Source: Chitinophagaceae bacterium
Lineage (GTDB): Bacteria; Bacteroidota; Bacteroidia; Chitinophagales; Chitinophagaceae
Assembly: GCA_947447265.1 (NCBI GenBank)
Contig: CANFKC010000029.1
Coordinates: forward strand, 1 to 64,000
DNA length: 64,000 bases
Direction of reading: 5' to 3'
This document shows positions 8,082-64,000 of this stretch, piece after piece (the first letter of the stretch is position 1; each line of letters starts with the position of its first letter). A program made the position numbers and the translations under genes. Under the pieces are notes generated by a model that saw nothing but the letters and a program-made list of their open reading frames with translations, was not told where the DNA came from and ran no database searches.

Positions 8082-8157
8082 TCGTTTCTGATTTTTTAGT
8101 AGTTAAAAAAACAGCCTATCAAGGCAGGGCCAAGATGGGCTGTATACGTTCATTGTG

Positions 8158-58269: not shown

Positions 58270-59214
58270 TTACTTCTTCAACCCGATCTCTCTCAGCCTT
58301 TCGTCAAGATATTCGCCGGCAGAGTAGTCTTCATATACTTTAGGATGGCTTTCATCTATGCAGCTATCCAGGCATGCAAGGCTCATATTGCTCTTCGGGT
58401 GCAGAAAGTATGGTATAGAATAGCGAGGTGTTGACCATTTTTCTTTTGGCGGATTCACTACACGGTGTGTGGTAGAACGGAGCCTGTTGTTGGTAAGGCG
58501 CTGTAACATATCGCCCACATTGCAAACTATTTGCTCTGGCAACGATGTTACTGCTACCCACTCATTCTTCATATTCAATATTTCCAGTCCATCAGCTGAT
58601 GCGCCAACAAGCAGGGTAATCAGGTTAATATCTTCATGCTGTTCAGCACGTATGGCTGATTTTGGCTCACTGGTAATTGGTGGGTAATAGATTGCCCTGA
58701 GTATGGAATTGCCATTGTGCACATGGGTATCAAAATAATGTTCTTCAAGGCCAAGGTACAATGCTATAGCACGTAACAAAGCGTTGCCCGATTGCTCAAA
58801 TGCCCTGTAGGCTTTCAGCAGGGTAGGTGTGAAGGGTGGCACATCATTCACCATAACATTTTCAGGATATTCATTTTTTATCGGGTCGCCATCTACCACT
58901 TCCTGGCCAAACTGGAAAAATTCTTTCAGGTCCGGTGCATCAAACCCTTTGGCGTGCTCCTGCCCGAACGATGTATAGCCACGCTGGCCTGCAAGGCCCG
59001 GTATTTCATAGCTCTTCTTCACATCAACCGGTAGCTTGAAAAATTCTTCTACATGCTGGTACAATTCAGCTATCAGCTCATCTGATATGCCATGGTTTTT
59101 AACGGCTACGAAACCTGTTTCTTCAAATGCTTTGCCTAATTGCCCTACGAATGCCGCTTTCAGGTTAGGGTCGGCACTGTTAAAATCGGCAAGGTTAACT
59201 ACTGGTATGCCCAT
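58270..59214 (-). CDS. 2-oxoglutarate/Fe(II) oxygenase (isopenicillin-N-synthase family)
   Basis: This 314-residue DIOX/2OG-Fe(II) enzyme has an N-terminal non-haem dioxygenase domain (VAVKNHGISDELIAELY). The iron ligands are HED in RAEQHEDINLITLL and the distal His in TTHRVVNPP, with the RYSIPYF motif contacting 2-oxoglutarate. It resembles bacterial IPNS-family hydroxylases of small molecules. The substrate is unknown. It is transcribed alone and ends in an octamer array and terminator. Confidence 0.9.
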   Translation of the reverse strand: MGIPVVNLADFNSADPNLKAAFVGQLGKAFEETGFVAVKNHGISDELIAELYQHVEEFFKLPVDVKKSYEIPGLAGQRGYTSFGQEHAKGFDAPDLKEFFQFGQEVVDGDPIKNEYPENVMVNDVPPFTPTLLKAYRAFEQSGNALLRAIALYLGLEEHYFDTHVHNGNSILRAIYYPPITSEPKSAIRAEQHEDINLITLLVGASADGLEILNMKNEWVAVTSLPEQIVCNVGDMLQRLTNNRLRSTTHRVVNPPKEKWSTPRYSIPYFLHPKSNMSLACLDSCIDESHPKVYEDYSAGEYLDERLREIGLKK

Positions 59215-60185: not shown

Positions 60186-61412
60186 TTACAATGTATTAGG
60201 CAGCAAGACTGATTTAAACTTTTTCGGGTCAAATAACCTAAGGTAAAAATAGCCGGTGCCGGCAAGGCCCATTAAAAGGCCTGGTGTTTTTTTATTGGTG
60301 TTAGTGCCGCTGGGCCACGGTATGCGGGGCGCATCAAAATTCTGGATGCCGTAAAGGCCAACCCCTTTTGCAAATTCGAGATAGTTCGCCTCTCCTGAAT
60401 CCAGTAAAATATCCGCATTGCCTGCTGCACCGTGGCAAAGACTGTAATTAGGTGGTGCTGCCGGATTCGTGAACATGTTTACCGAGCCCCTGTGCGTGGT
60501 GGCCATCGCAATTTTCGATTGTTCGTCCATCGCAGCATCAACAGTAGTATCGAAGGTGTACTTCCTCGAAAGCGCTATGCCTGGTGCTCCATGGCACCAG
60601 GCCAGTCCGCAGCCAGGTACGGGTGGTAATGGCCCCATGCTATCTCTCAGGTCCGGCCAGTTTTGTTCTGTAGCGTTAAAGCAAAATTGCTCGTAAGCAA
60701 AAGACTTCATAGCCGCATCAAGGTATTTGCTATCGTTGGTTGCTTTATAAAGGTCTACGAGGCTGGTGGCCATGCCCGCAGCGCCATGCGAAAAGCCGGT
60801 AAGGCTGCGTGTGCTCTGCCCTGTATCCCATGATATGCCAATAGGTTCTGTTTTGGCAAGCTTCATCAGTTCATCGCCTAGTTTTACTGCAAGGGCGGTA
60901 AGTGCCGGCTTATCATATTTGTTGCCTAGCTGCAGCAGTATCGGAATGGTGCCGGTAATGCCGCTTATCATATCTATTTCGAAAGGCGCAATGCTTTCAC
61001 TTTTCAGATTGTTCAGCAGATTAAGCCCGGCATTTATCCATGCTTTGTTATTAAACTGTTCACCGGCTTTTACCAGTACAAAGGCAATACCCGGTTTGCC
61101 CGAATAAAAGCCATGATCAAGCGTATTGCCGGTTTGCGACAATACCTGTGCTATAGCGCCATTAAAAGTGCGCAGTAGTGCTTCATCGGGTCTTACACTA
61201 TAAAGCGCCATTAAAAAGTAAGCGATGCCGGAGGTGCCGGAATAAAAGTCTGCGCCAAACGTACGGGTAACAGGCAGAAACTGCCCGTCAATGGCTTCAA
61301 TCCAGTTACCCTGCCATGTACACCTTTCATTGTTATCCCAAATGGCATCCCTGACCAGTTCCTGCCCTATATTCCATGCGGTGTCAAAAAAAACTGAATT
61401 ATTATTATCCAT
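60186..61412 (-). CDS. Stand-alone LanC-type lanthipeptide cyclase
   Basis: About 408 residues from the ATG at 61412, which leaves an 8-nt overlap with the upstream gene; 61424 is an alternative. The LanC (alpha,alpha)6 barrel motifs recur: FYSGTSGIAYF, HGFYSGKPGIAF, GFSHGAAGM, AWCHGAPGIAL, SLCHGAAGN, GLMGLAGTGYFYL. Zinc-ligand candidates are Cys277, Cys330 and His331, with His213 as active-site base (numbered from the 412-residue frame). It would add Cys thiols to dehydrated Ser/Thr to form lanthionine rings. Context with kinase and HopA1 lyase supports a lanthipeptide role rather than a eukaryote-type LanCL. Confidence 0.9.
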   Translation of the reverse strand: MDNNNSVFFDTAWNIGQELVRDAIWDNNERCTWQGNWIEAIDGQFLPVTRTFGADFYSGTSGIAYFLMALYSVRPDEALLRTFNGAIAQVLSQTGNTLDHGFYSGKPGIAFVLVKAGEQFNNKAWINAGLNLLNNLKSESIAPFEIDMISGITGTIPILLQLGNKYDKPALTALAVKLGDELMKLAKTEPIGISWDTGQSTRSLTGFSHGAAGMATSLVDLYKATNDSKYLDAAMKSFAYEQFCFNATEQNWPDLRDSMGPLPPVPGCGLAWCHGAPGIALSRKYTFDTTVDAAMDEQSKIAMATTHRGSVNMFTNPAAPPNYSLCHGAAGNADILLDSGEANYLEFAKGVGLYGIQNFDAPRIPWPSGTNTNKKTPGLLMGLAGTGYFYLRLFDPKKFKSVLLPNTL

Positions 61413-62436
61413 TGATTGTGGCATTTTTATTACAGATATCTAAAGTGCGGGTGTACGATTTTTCATTCAGGAAGGGGAGGTTGATATCCACATTATTAGC
61501 ATTGAATATATCGGTTATCATACTCATCCGGTCTTCCACACTTGTTTTATTAAGGTAGAAAGAATTGAGCAGCCCTGTGGTTACCATTTGCATACGGTTC
61601 ATACCAAAGCTGTTGCCGTCTATCGGGCTTTCTGCTATGCCAAGGCCCGGCATTAACTGGTGGCTGAAAAGCGAAACATCCTGATGCATAAAGGGAGTGA
61701 CGGTTTCGTTAATAAGCGGCAATAGCCTCAGCACCTGATCAAAATACCGTTGTTGCAGGTATAGTACACAGCAGTCGCGGCGGGTAAAATGGGTGGGGTC
61801 TATAAGGCATTTAAAGAGGAAAGGTATGCGGCGGTCGTTCAGGTGCCGGCTCACCCCCGAAACCACTTCCGCAGCGCCTTTTGCGGAGATATTCCAGTAG
61901 AACCTGATTATGGTTGCTGTGTAGTCAAATACTTCATTGCCATAAACATAATAAAAGCCCGGGGTAGGGTCGCCTGTTTTGGTTTTAAAGCTAATGATCT
62001 CGCCAACCTGTGGCTTTGCACCGGGCACTTTCGGCTGGTATTCTGCGGCGCGTATAATGCGGGTGTTGCTCCCTTTGGCAAGGTGAATGTAGTTACTGTC
62101 AGCCACAGACGTTACCGTCCAGCCGGAATCAGAGATCCCTTTCGAATGATTGTTTGCTATGAGGTTTTGAAGGTATTGTGTGGCATCGCCCACACCTTCA
62201 GCCAGCGCATTCAGGCCGGCTGTATCGTTCGGGTTTTGCTGGAAGTGTATTTTTTTAGCATAGCATTCACTGTACATAACAGGTATCATCATGTTGTATA
62301 CAGCTGGTATGCGTTCGGCATCAGTTTGCAGCGCAGGGCTTACCGTATAGTCTTTACCCCTGAAGCTGAAGCCTTGTGGTATGGGTTGAACTTCCTGAAC
62401 AATGGAAGATAGCTCGGTCATGCTTTTATGAGTCAT
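61405..62436 (-). CDS. HopA1-like lyase of class V lanthipeptide type
   Basis: This 343-residue protein carries the HopA1 core RFYWNISAKGAAEVVSG (about residues 178-194), followed by RRIPFLFKCLIDP and RRDCCVLYLQQRYF. Near the C-terminus it has SFGMNRMQMVTTGLL. In class V lanthipeptide and thioamitide pathways the HopA1-like protein eliminates phosphate from phospho-Ser/Thr made by the partner kinase. The gene ends within the LanC start and begins 10 bp after the kinase stop. Confidence 0.85.
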   Translation of the reverse strand: MTHKSMTELSSIVQEVQPIPQGFSFRGKDYTVSPALQTDAERIPAVYNMMIPVMYSECYAKKIHFQQNPNDTAGLNALAEGVGDATQYLQNLIANNHSKGISDSGWTVTSVADSNYIHLAKGSNTRIIRAAEYQPKVPGAKPQVGEIISFKTKTGDPTPGFYYVYGNEVFDYTATIIRFYWNISAKGAAEVVSGVSRHLNDRRIPFLFKCLIDPTHFTRRDCCVLYLQQRYFDQVLRLLPLINETVTPFMHQDVSLFSHQLMPGLGIAESPIDGNSFGMNRMQMVTTGLLNSFYLNKTSVEDRMSMITDIFNANNVDINLPFLNEKSYTRTLDICNKNATING

Positions 62437-62445
62437 TGTCAGTAG

Positions 62446-63534
62446 TTATAGTTTTATGCCCAGCAGATCTTTTGCGGCGTTTTGGGGCGATTTAAGAATG
62501 TTAAAGGCCAGTTGCAGGCTGCGCACATTGTTGGGATATATCTGGGGGTTATACACCACTCCTTCTATTGAAGTCTGTACTATCCTGGCGGCGGCAAACC
62601 TCAGGCATTTGTAAAGCGATGCTGTCGCGGTTGCGCTATCGTGCTGCATCAGGGCAGCATAGGTTTTCCAGAAGCTGTTGATGGATGCCTGCATATTGGT
62701 AATGTCAAAGCCCTTCATGTTTTCTTTAAGGTCTTTGCTGCGCGGGTCAGCATTATCAAAGCTGAATACCCATGTGGAAATGTAGGATTGTATTAGCCCT
62801 GCAACATCCCAGGCCGGGTCGCCTATATCGGCAAGCTCCCAGTCAATAAGGCTTTGCTTCATGCCATCGGCAGCGGGGTAAATAATAAAGTTCATCCACT
62901 TGATATCGCCATGTATCAGCGTGGTCATTTTATAGTCGGCTTTAAGTTGGTCAAAATGGCCTTTTAGTTCGGTATTTCCGTATACCATCGACATAAGTTC
63001 CTCGTTAGCCTTTGAGCCCGGGAACATTTGTCCTGGAGGGAAATCAAATATCTGTAATGCCCATGGCAGTGTTTTCGGGAAGATAGAAGTATCAGTGCCT
63101 TCAGGTATTGGGGTGTGGTAAGAATGCAGCAGCACTGCCTGTTGCACAGCCAGCTCCGGAAAATAGCTTTTTTGTTTTACAAAATATTCATGTATGCTTT
63201 GTGCTCCGGGAAAGTATTCAACTGTGAGGGTATGGCGTTGCCTGTCATAGTCAAAGAACGTGGGCAGACCTGAAGCTACCTTGGGATACATGCTCCCCTG
63301 CGAAAGGAAGCGGTAGGTGTTGGCTTCGCGGGTAAGCACGCTTGTGGTAACGGCATCAAATTTCGAGGTTTGTTTTATAAAGAGGCTCTTGCGCGATTTG
63401 CACAGCACCTTAAACAGGTTGTTACGGCTGCCAGAAATGGGCAGCACCATATAATCGCCATCAACAAGCACTTTTTCTTCAATAGTTTTTCTTTCCAGCA
63501 AATAATAGCAAAGGTGCTCCTGTGTCAGTAACAT
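62446..63534 (-). CDS. Aminoglycoside-phosphotransferase-like kinase of class V lanthipeptide type
   Basis: This 362-residue protein has the APH/protein-kinase-like fold: Lys54 in LFIKQT, Glu70, the catalytic loop HGDIKWMN (His208-Asp210, Asn215) and the metal-binding Asp231 in LIDWELADIGDPAWDV. In class V clusters such a kinase phosphorylates Ser/Thr of the precursor. It is the first enzyme gene after the precursor and hairpin, followed by HopA1 and LanC with near-zero gaps. Confidence 0.85.
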   Translation of the reverse strand: MLLTQEHLCYYLLERKTIEEKVLVDGDYMVLPISGSRNNLFKVLCKSRKSLFIKQTSKFDAVTTSVLTREANTYRFLSQGSMYPKVASGLPTFFDYDRQRHTLTVEYFPGAQSIHEYFVKQKSYFPELAVQQAVLLHSYHTPIPEGTDTSIFPKTLPWALQIFDFPPGQMFPGSKANEELMSMVYGNTELKGHFDQLKADYKMTTLIHGDIKWMNFIIYPAADGMKQSLIDWELADIGDPAWDVAGLIQSYISTWVFSFDNADPRSKDLKENMKGFDITNMQASINSFWKTYAALMQHDSATATASLYKCLRFAAARIVQTSIEGVVYNPQIYPNNVRSLQLAFNILKSPQNAAKDLLGIKL

Positions 63535-63588
63535 GATTTGTGCTTGATAAATGAATTGAATAGCGGGTCGTATTTTTCAGGCTCAAGT

Positions 63589-63623
63589 TATAAAAAGCAG
63601 CAGTATAAAAATACTGCTGCTTT
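63589..63623 (-). terminator. Hairpin with T-run between the precursor and the enzyme genes
   Basis: A perfect 13-bp stem (63594-63606 with 63611-63623, 4-nt loop) is followed on the minus strand by five T. It lies 26 bp after the precursor stop codon and about 60 bp before the kinase start, so it could attenuate enzyme expression relative to the precursor. Confidence 0.8.
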
Positions 63624-63648
63624 AAAATTATGCTTCATTTAAAATGTA

Positions 63649-64000
63649 CTAGCAAATGAATGGAATACCTGTGCAATGTGCAGTAGGTATGCAACCCGGT
63701 ATGCTTGGTATGCCGCAATTTAGCGTCGGTACAACAACTGTCGTAGCCTGGGTAGCGCATGCCGCAACTGGTAGAGTTGGTGTAGCAGCATTAGCGTTTG
63801 GTGCTGGCGGGCAATTGTGAACTGTAGGGCAGTTTGCAGGCACTGATATAAGGCAATGCGCAGGGTTTGACGTTGGCGTACAACCTAACCAGCCTGTTAC
63901 ACCTATAGTCTGTGGTGCAGCAGCGTTAGCGTTTGCTGCTTCGTTGCCTGTTGGCATGCAGCCGGCAGGTAAAGTAGCCGGGCATTGGCCTGGTTGTGTC
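63649..64000 (-). CDS. Repeated, multi-core lanthipeptide precursor, 5' part beyond the window
   Basis: The frame is open through the right edge, so at least 116 residues are visible and the start lies past 64000; the ATG at 63957 is internal. The visible part has 11 Cys, 16 Thr and 3 Ser, many Pro and Ala, and no Lys, Arg or Asp. Asn/Ala spacers (NEAANANAAAP, PNANAATP) separate Cys-rich blocks in which GCxPT recurs (GCMPTG, GCTPTS, GCIPTA). It ends at IPFIC. With the kinase, HopA1 lyase and LanC genes next to it, it is best read as a lanthipeptide precursor with several cores. Confidence 0.75.
   Translation of the reverse strand, partial: TQPGQCPATLPAGCMPTGNEAANANAAAPQTIGVTGWLGCTPTSNPAHCLISVPANCPTVHNCPPAPNANAATPTLPVAACATQATTVVVPTLNCGIPSIPGCIPTAHCTGIPFIC

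What the first reader, a model, noticed from the sequence alone, without database searches (positions are those of the whole stretch)
60186..64000. Class V-type lanthipeptide cluster in a Bacteroidota genome
Four same-strand genes in order: Cys/Thr-rich peptide, APH-like kinase (HGD...N and LIDWE motifs), HopA1-like lyase (RFYWNISAKGA core) and stand-alone LanC with its Cys/Cys/His zinc ligands. Kinase plus HopA1 lyase plus cyclase is the enzyme set of class V lanthipeptides (such as lexapeptide and cacaoidin), described mainly in actinobacteria. The genes are nearly gapless, so they act together. What is seen: the four genes and motifs. What is inferred: that the product is a lanthipeptide in this phylum.
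Basis: partly seen in the sequence, partly recalled or inferred. Interest (0 to 1): 0.95.

Follow-up and report, generated by a model that had tools for sequence, protein, structure and literature searches.

The report
Giant precursor with class V enzymes
A Bacteroidota bacterium carries a complete three-enzyme set for making ring-stapled peptides (lanthipeptides) next to a giant repetitive protein whose threonines and cysteines sit at a fixed ring-forming spacing, which suggests many rings, or many peptides, from one gene.

Summary
On the minus strand at 64000-60186 lie the end of a Cys/Thr-rich gene, a kinase (LanK), a HopA1 lyase (LanY) and a zinc LanC. Catalytic residues known from class V are kept; the lyase's best solved-structure match is LxmY of lexapeptide. 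With a LanC this is the class Vb type, not the lexapeptide/cacaoidin (Va) type. In 42 of 59 core cysteines a Thr/Ser sits exactly 5 residues upstream; four copies of a 38-aa repeat differ only by silent changes. Kordia-like flavobacteria have the same operon and motif grammar, but with leader and repeats as separate genes. The leader profile hit 1 of 395 and 3 of 397 genomes, all four with HopA1. A July 2026 paper says multi-core precursors have not been reported for lanthipeptides. Not shown: rings, cleavage, export, activity. I saw no linked exporter, and the genome has no C39-peptidase match. New variant of a known kind.

The parts
63649..64000 (-). 3' part of the giant Cys/Thr-rich precursor gene; the frame continues on the contig to 64685 and stays open there (344 aa held on this contig). 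A second piece with start codon, 156-aa leader-like N-terminus and repeats (525 aa) lies at C82:8111-9687.
63594..63623 (-). perfect 13-bp hairpin, 4-nt loop, followed by a U run in the transcript; terminator/attenuator-like element between precursor and enzyme genes
62446..63534 (-). LanK-type kinase, 362 aa; H208, D210, N215, D231 conserved
61405..62436 (-). LanY-type HopA1 lyase, 343 aa; R178, K209, R219, Y226 match CaoY R187, K219, R229, Y236 in order and spacing
60186..61424 (-). stand-alone LanC-type cyclase, 412 aa; zinc ligands C277, C330, H331

Best explanation
A class Vb lanthipeptide synthetase set (LanK + LanY + LanC) acts on one giant precursor, of which two pieces of 525 and 344 aa are held. 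LanK phosphorylates Thr (and the few Ser) of the core, LanY removes the phosphate to leave dehydrobutyrine, and LanC adds the Cys five residues downstream, giving many six-residue methyllanthionine rings (T-x4-C). An N-terminal leader-like region of up to 156 aa guides the enzymes. The core is a string of modules of roughly 20-110 aa separated by Ala/Asn/Gln-rich linkers (PAANAN, NAANAQQ; GGNAQAQ in Kordia-type relatives); these are probably processing sites, so that one translation product yields several peptides. Shown at sequence level: genes, catalytic residues, leader-like region, repeats, Thr-Cys register, linkers. Inferred: that the two pieces are one gene, enzyme activity, ring formation, cleavage, export and role.
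For: Enzymes: PF17914 8e-35, PF05147 5e-57, PF01636 2.1e-8; LxmY (9dk1_B) closest solved chain, 1.3e-9, and LxmKY entries ranked 1-3 by fold; active-site residues invariant in 7 of 7 aligned relatives for each enzyme. Precursor: T/S at Cys-5 in 42 of 59 own core Cys, about 12 expected and 0 of 500 shuffles reaching the count in either piece; 64 distinct hexamers over five precursors and 29 of 54 non-redundant contexts against 5-14 at other upstream offsets. Four 38-aa repeat copies: 6-12 synonymous, 0 nonsynonymous changes in each of six pairs. Same gene order and same kind of precursor in Kordia, G754 and G928, and in G654 with damage. Leader profile in 1 of 395 and 3 of 397 genomes, all four with HopA1. 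In Deinococcus a weak match to the leader (E = 2) lies just upstream of a kinase + HopA1-LanC locus.
Against: No product, ring or cleavage was observed. The kinase is far below the LxmK cut-off, 51 against 315 bits. No exporter was seen near the cluster, and the own genome has no C39 peptidase match. The two precursor pieces lie on different contigs. Relatives vary: G654 has no leader match, Tenacibaculum has a 109-aa ORF and no leader match. Repeat copies are not independent, and Thr right after Cys is also enriched, 25 of 60 in Kordia with 0 of 500 shuffles and 12 of 30 in G928 with 1 of 500. No peptidase gene was seen beside the own cluster.
Confidence: 0.65

Rival explanations
1. The giant protein is modified as described but is not cut into peptides: it stays whole as a thioether-stapled, nearly uncharged structural protein (coat, fibre or matrix), with the Ala/Asn linkers as flexible spacers.
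For: Great length, repeats, almost no charge (344-aa piece: K+R 0, D+E 2), no exporter seen, no C39 peptidase in the genome, no peptidase gene seen beside the own cluster.
Against: Modules differ from each other along the chain. A subtilase/pro-kumamolisin-type peptidase gene lies beside the Kordia cluster (Pfam) and similar frames beside G754, G928 and G654 (not scanned with Pfam). Deinococcus has the leader-type region with one short Cys core.
Confidence: 0.22
2. The Cys-rich protein is an ordinary disulfide or metal-binding repeat protein, and the enzymes modify another, unseen peptide.
For: No thioether was shown. In Kordia a small ORF with a class I-type lanthipeptide leader (NF038153) lies just after LanC.
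Against: The fixed T-x4-C spacing is not needed for disulfides; precursor and enzymes stay together in order in Kordia, G754, G928 and G654.
Confidence: 0.07
3. The cluster is a recently acquired remnant that no longer makes a product.
For: No HopA1 and no leader in the other 195 of 196 relatives searched; no exporter seen.
Against: All three enzyme frames are full length with intact active sites, and repeat copies differ only silently.
Confidence: 0.04

Closest known systems
Class Vb lanthipeptides (LanK + LanY + LanC; mSmoA, Pei et al. 2022, known to me only through PMC12328550, PMC12291118 and PMC10676316; the paper itself is not held)
   Same: Kinase, HopA1 lyase and stand-alone LanC; no LanX or LanD seen beside the genes
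   Different: Giant multi-module precursor with long leader-like region; Bacteroidota host. I could not compare sequences with the Smo proteins
Class Va lanthipeptides (lexapeptide, cacaoidin, pristinin A3)
   Same: Same dehydration pair: LxmK/LxmY-like kinase and lyase, active-site residues kept
   Different: Va clusters have LanX and LanD and no LanC (PMC12291118, passages); short precursors
K-Y-C cluster on Aliiroseovarius crassostreae plasmid (L017)
   Same: Small ORF, kinase, HopA1, LanC in the same order; hairpin between ORF and kinase
   Different: 80-aa Cys-bearing ORF in place of the giant precursor, no leader-like region in it
Multi-core RiPP precursors such as cyanobactins and microviridins (from PMC13343206 passage, and the PMC5934393 abstract start in the listing)
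   Same: Several cores in one precursor, with linkers
   Different: Other chemistry; cleavage here is untested

Membership tests
Class V lanthipeptide biosynthesis | LanK: APH-type kinase (PF01636) with catalytic residues | tested here: met
   PF01636 2.1e-8; H208/D210/N215/D231 invariant in 7 of 7. LxmK equivalog cut-off not reached, 51 of 315 bits
Class V lanthipeptide biosynthesis | LanY: HopA1-type lyase (PF17914) with the Arg, Lys, Arg, Tyr of CaoY | tested here: met
   8e-35; R178, K209, R219, Y226 against CaoY R187, K219, R229, Y236 (PMC9486802); numbers compared, sequences not aligned
Class Vb (LanC-dependent) subgroup | stand-alone LanC with zinc ligands | tested here: met
   PF05147 5e-57, C277/C330/H331
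Class Va subgroup | LanX and LanD present, no LanC | tested here: not met
   LanC is present; no second kinase or flavoprotein recognised among the frames beside the cluster, by eye only
Lanthipeptides | (methyl)lanthionine in the product | not testable with these tools
   needs mass spectrometry; Thr-Cys register is indirect support
Class V lanthipeptide biosynthesis | precursor with N-terminal leader and C-terminal Cys/Ser/Thr core | tested here: inconclusive
   leader-like region and core found, but on another contig than the enzymes; unrelated in length to the under-110-residue ORFs collected in PMC9486802
Multi-core RiPP precursor | repeated cores separated by linkers that are cleaved | tested here: inconclusive
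   modules and linkers found; cleavage untested

The most novel reading that the evidence does not exclude
One gene of about 869 aa or more encodes a multi-core lanthipeptide, or a thioether-stapled giant protein, with dozens of T-x4-C methyllanthionine rings made by a three-enzyme class Vb machine. In the Kordia-type version leader and core string are separate genes, so one leader protein would guide the enzymes in trans. My paper searches (listings capped) showed neither a multi-core lanthipeptide precursor nor a natural in-trans leader for lanthipeptides.
Probability: 0.42. Interest if true: 0.88.

Novelty: new variant of a known kind. Interest (0 to 1): 0.78.

Why it matters
[quoted passage not shown] PMC9486802 section 7). 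If the reading is right, one leader guides dozens of ring closures on one chain, and the separate leader gene of the Kordia-type clusters makes leader action in trans directly testable. It could also be a route to long thioether-stapled polypeptides.

Tried and rejected
Rejected: a lexapeptide/cacaoidin-type (Va) cluster, because a LanC is present. Rejected as overlap: the two contig ends align over 118 nt with 6 differences and share no exact overlap beyond 1 base, so they are probably different repeat copies; the number of missing copies is unknown. The 40-base C44 match (84%) falls on the hairpin between precursor and kinase (window about 63591-63634); one search showed no cluster genes there. 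G680/L031 has a weak PF17914 match (22 bits) in another gene context; I do not count it as class V.

Led nowhere: single-protein scans with HopA1; leader structure prediction from one sequence (pLDDT 33.6); solved-structure search with the leader profile (best E 0.06). The HopA1 model is poor (pLDDT 49.7, TM about 0.3), so its fold ranking counts only because the sequence search agrees. One search treats repeat copies as independent; thins near-identical contexts but does not model descent. dS is near saturation (0.7-1.6) for the flavobacterial pairs, so those ratios are rough. The hairpins in relatives had no chance control. Profile A8 contains the own, Kordia, G754, G928 and Deinococcus sequences, so its four matches are expected; its value is the lack of matches elsewhere in evenly drawn subsets. 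CaoY and LxmK residue numbers were read from papers, not aligned.

Full report
OBSERVATION. The window is the first 64000 bases of contig C29 (64685 bases) of a 5.06-Mb genome in 98 contigs. On the minus strand at its end lie a Cys/Thr-rich frame, a 362-aa kinase, a 343-aa HopA1 protein and a 412-aa LanC. Kinase-HopA1 gap 9 nt; HopA1-LanC overlap 20 nt; precursor-kinase gap 114 nt, with a perfect 13-bp hairpin and U run (-19 kcal/mol, z -4.56). In the same gap of relatives, perfect 9-bp hairpins occur in L029 and L017, a 25-nt arm pair (72%) in L020, 8-bp ones in L028 and only imperfect or widely spaced ones in L019 (five longest shown, no chance control). I read the own one as an attenuator that keeps precursor above enzyme level (inference).

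PHYLUM. The tools name no organism for the own genome. 150 scored matches to the T9SS sorting domain (150 of 304 candidates scored; in the 14 controls it rang in Bacteroides ihuae and Deinobacterium chartae, over the cut-off in one), a DUF4290 protein and locus relatives in Kordia and Tenacibaculum fit Bacteroidota.

ENZYMES. LanC: PF05147 5e-57, closest solved chain LicM2 6st5, C277/C330/H331 invariant in 7 of 7, the only LANC_like match in the genome. HopA1: PF17914 8e-35. In PMC9486802 (abstract, sections 3 and 7, and part 1 of 3 of section 4 read) CaoY R187, K219 and R229 were mutated and Y236 is named; the window protein has R178, K209, R219 and Y226, spaced 31/10/7 against 32/10/7, invariant in 7 of 7 (one row is a truncated protein and two are cut from fusions). 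Closest solved chain 9dk1_B, 1.3e-9, which PMC12141560 (passages) gives as LxmKY of lexapeptide; Foldseek on a weak model ranks the three LxmKY entries first, then two P. syringae effector entries. Kinase: PF01636 2.1e-8; best NCBIfam model LxmK at 51 bits against a cut-off of 315; H208, D210, N215 and D231 invariant in 7 of 7. Kordia and Tenacibaculum kinases also match LxmK best, at 65 and 66 bits.

PRECURSOR. The contig ends inside repeats: two 294-nt copies, 71% alike without gaps. A search of the own genome with this stretch found two further matches at the end of C82 and a 25-base one elsewhere on C29. C82 (9687 bases) carries an ATG-started frame at 8111 that runs off the contig end: a Pro/Ala/Lys-rich start, a region of about 110 aa, then Cys/Thr-rich repeats. 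The pieces are 525 and 344 aa. The contig ends align over 118 nt with 6 differences; I treat them as different copies and joined nothing. Four copies of a 38-aa segment are identical in protein and differ by 6-12 synonymous and 0 nonsynonymous changes in all six pairs: strong evidence for coding and for selection on the protein.

RING REGISTER. T/S stands exactly 5 before Cys in 21 of 30 (first piece, after residue 156) and 21 of 29 (second piece), about 6 expected in each; 41 of 60 in Kordia (11 expected) and 20 of 30 in G928 (5 expected); 0 of 500 shuffles reached any of these. The next upstream offset is -3 in Kordia (16, 11 expected) and G928 (9, 5 expected). Downstream, Thr right after Cys is enriched in Kordia (25 of 60; 0 of 500) and G928 (12 of 30; 1 of 500), and +4 in both own pieces and Kordia (20, 9 and 5 of 500). 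Counts with G754 and G654: 42/59 own, 41/60 Kordia, 22/30 G754, 20/30 G928, 16/28 G654; 64 distinct hexamers; after thinning similar contexts 29 of 54 at -5 against 5-14 at the other upstream offsets. A fixed Thr-to-Cys distance fits methyllanthionine rings of one size; disulfides would not need it (inference). Ser is rare (12 in the 344-aa piece, 6 in Kordia's 585 aa). Ala/Asn/Gln-rich linkers divide the chain into modules of about 20-110 aa (the linker patterns were chosen by eye).

RELATIVES. HopA1: 1 of 196 relatives and 1 of 395 in a phylum draw, both the own genome alone; 5 of 397 in Kordia's family, one of them (G680) weak and in another context. A genome-contig scan with a two-sequence alignment gave Tenacibaculum and Kordia (2 of 179 candidate stretches). 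Kordia, G754 and G928 have a peptidase frame (S8/pro-kumamolisin by Pfam in Kordia), a separate leader-type protein (138-142 aa from its Met, ending CGCGKCG), a separate repeat protein (313-585 aa), then LanK, LanY and LanC. G654 has peptidase frame, 308-aa repeat protein and enzymes with a stop and unknown bases but no leader match. Tenacibaculum has a 109-aa Cys-bearing ORF before K-Y-C and no leader match. Own and Kordia-type precursors share GPTG..xC, THLLGC and ATVCTQI motifs and the ending CIPTxxCTG. Own enzymes are 26-41% identical to those of Kordia, G754, G928 and Tenacibaculum. Among Kordia, G754 and G928, dN/dS is 0.055-0.12 (enzymes), 0.24-0.30 (leader) and 0.13-0.19 (precursor), with dS near saturation. 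On plasmids, 14 records match HopA1: I opened Runella, Deinococcus, Rhizobium (two, one without annotation), Aliiroseovarius, Tolypothrix and Nostoc. Deinococcus and Rhizobium johnstonii have kinase + HopA1-LanC fusion, Aliiroseovarius K-Y-C, the two cyanobacteria kinase + HopA1 + aldo/keto reductase. The leader region's weak Deinococcus match (E = 2) lies just upstream of that kinase, in an unannotated frame with one short Cys core.

LEADER SPECIFICITY. The profile A8 matched 1 of 395 and 3 of 397 genomes; all four have HopA1. Of the six HopA1-positive genomes, G654 and G680 have no leader match. A single-sequence search matched 1 of 196 relatives, the own genome. No fold could be assigned.

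EXPORT. I recognised no transporter among the frames listed beside the cluster, but not all were scanned against Pfam. The own genome has no C39 peptidase match, while the other four of five searched have. Exporter and protease remain open.

LITERATURE. Class Vb = LanK + LanY + LanC (PMC12291118 and PMC12328550, passages); more than 240 putative LanC-bearing class V clusters are mentioned (PMC10676316, passage). The primary paper is not held. PMC12328550 says class V had only been found in actinobacteria; PMC7794033 section 9 lists orthologues in Firmicutes and distant ones in Cyanobacteria, Planctomycetes and Proteobacteria; PMC9486802 section 7 predicts cyanobacterial ones. PMC13343206 (passage) says multi-core precursors have not been reported for lanthipeptides. 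My searches listed no class V or multi-core lanthipeptide in Bacteroidota; listings were capped (20 of 2,398; 15 of 167) and the library holds open-licence papers only. A Kordia antarctica paper mentions an antiSMASH 'lanthipeptide' cluster without class (PMC7477175, passage); it may or may not be this one.

VERDICT. A real class Vb-type synthetase set in Bacteroidota with an unusual giant precursor. The enzymes look like class V; the precursor anatomy is the new part. Ring formation, cleavage and function are inferred.

Noticed in passing
L020:12190-12414 (Kordia, just after LanC): 74-aa ORF with a class I lanthipeptide leader match (NF038153, 22.7 bits against a cut-off of 22) and a Cys-rich core; possibly a second substrate of the same enzymes.
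   Followed up: partly
L012:5661-8378 (Runella rosea plasmid): Bacteroidota kinase + short HopA1 frame (218 aa) beside a glutaminase-type protein and response regulators, with no LanC annotated in the stretch.
   Followed up: partly
L031:9156-10175 (G680): Weak HopA1-family match (22 bits) in a 339-aa protein among genes that do not look like a lanthipeptide cluster; context unresolved.
   Followed up: no
L014:6788-9190 and L016:6530-8863: HopA1 and LanC fused in one protein next to a kinase in Deinococcus and Rhizobium: a two-protein version of the set.
   Followed up: partly
L015:1240-2241 (Nostoc plasmid): Four equal-sized, evenly spaced small ORFs before a kinase + HopA1 pair, likely tandem precursor genes.
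   Followed up: no
window 58270-59214 (-): 2OG-Fe(II) oxygenase family gene about 1 kb beyond LanC; whether it belongs to the cluster is unknown.
   Followed up: no
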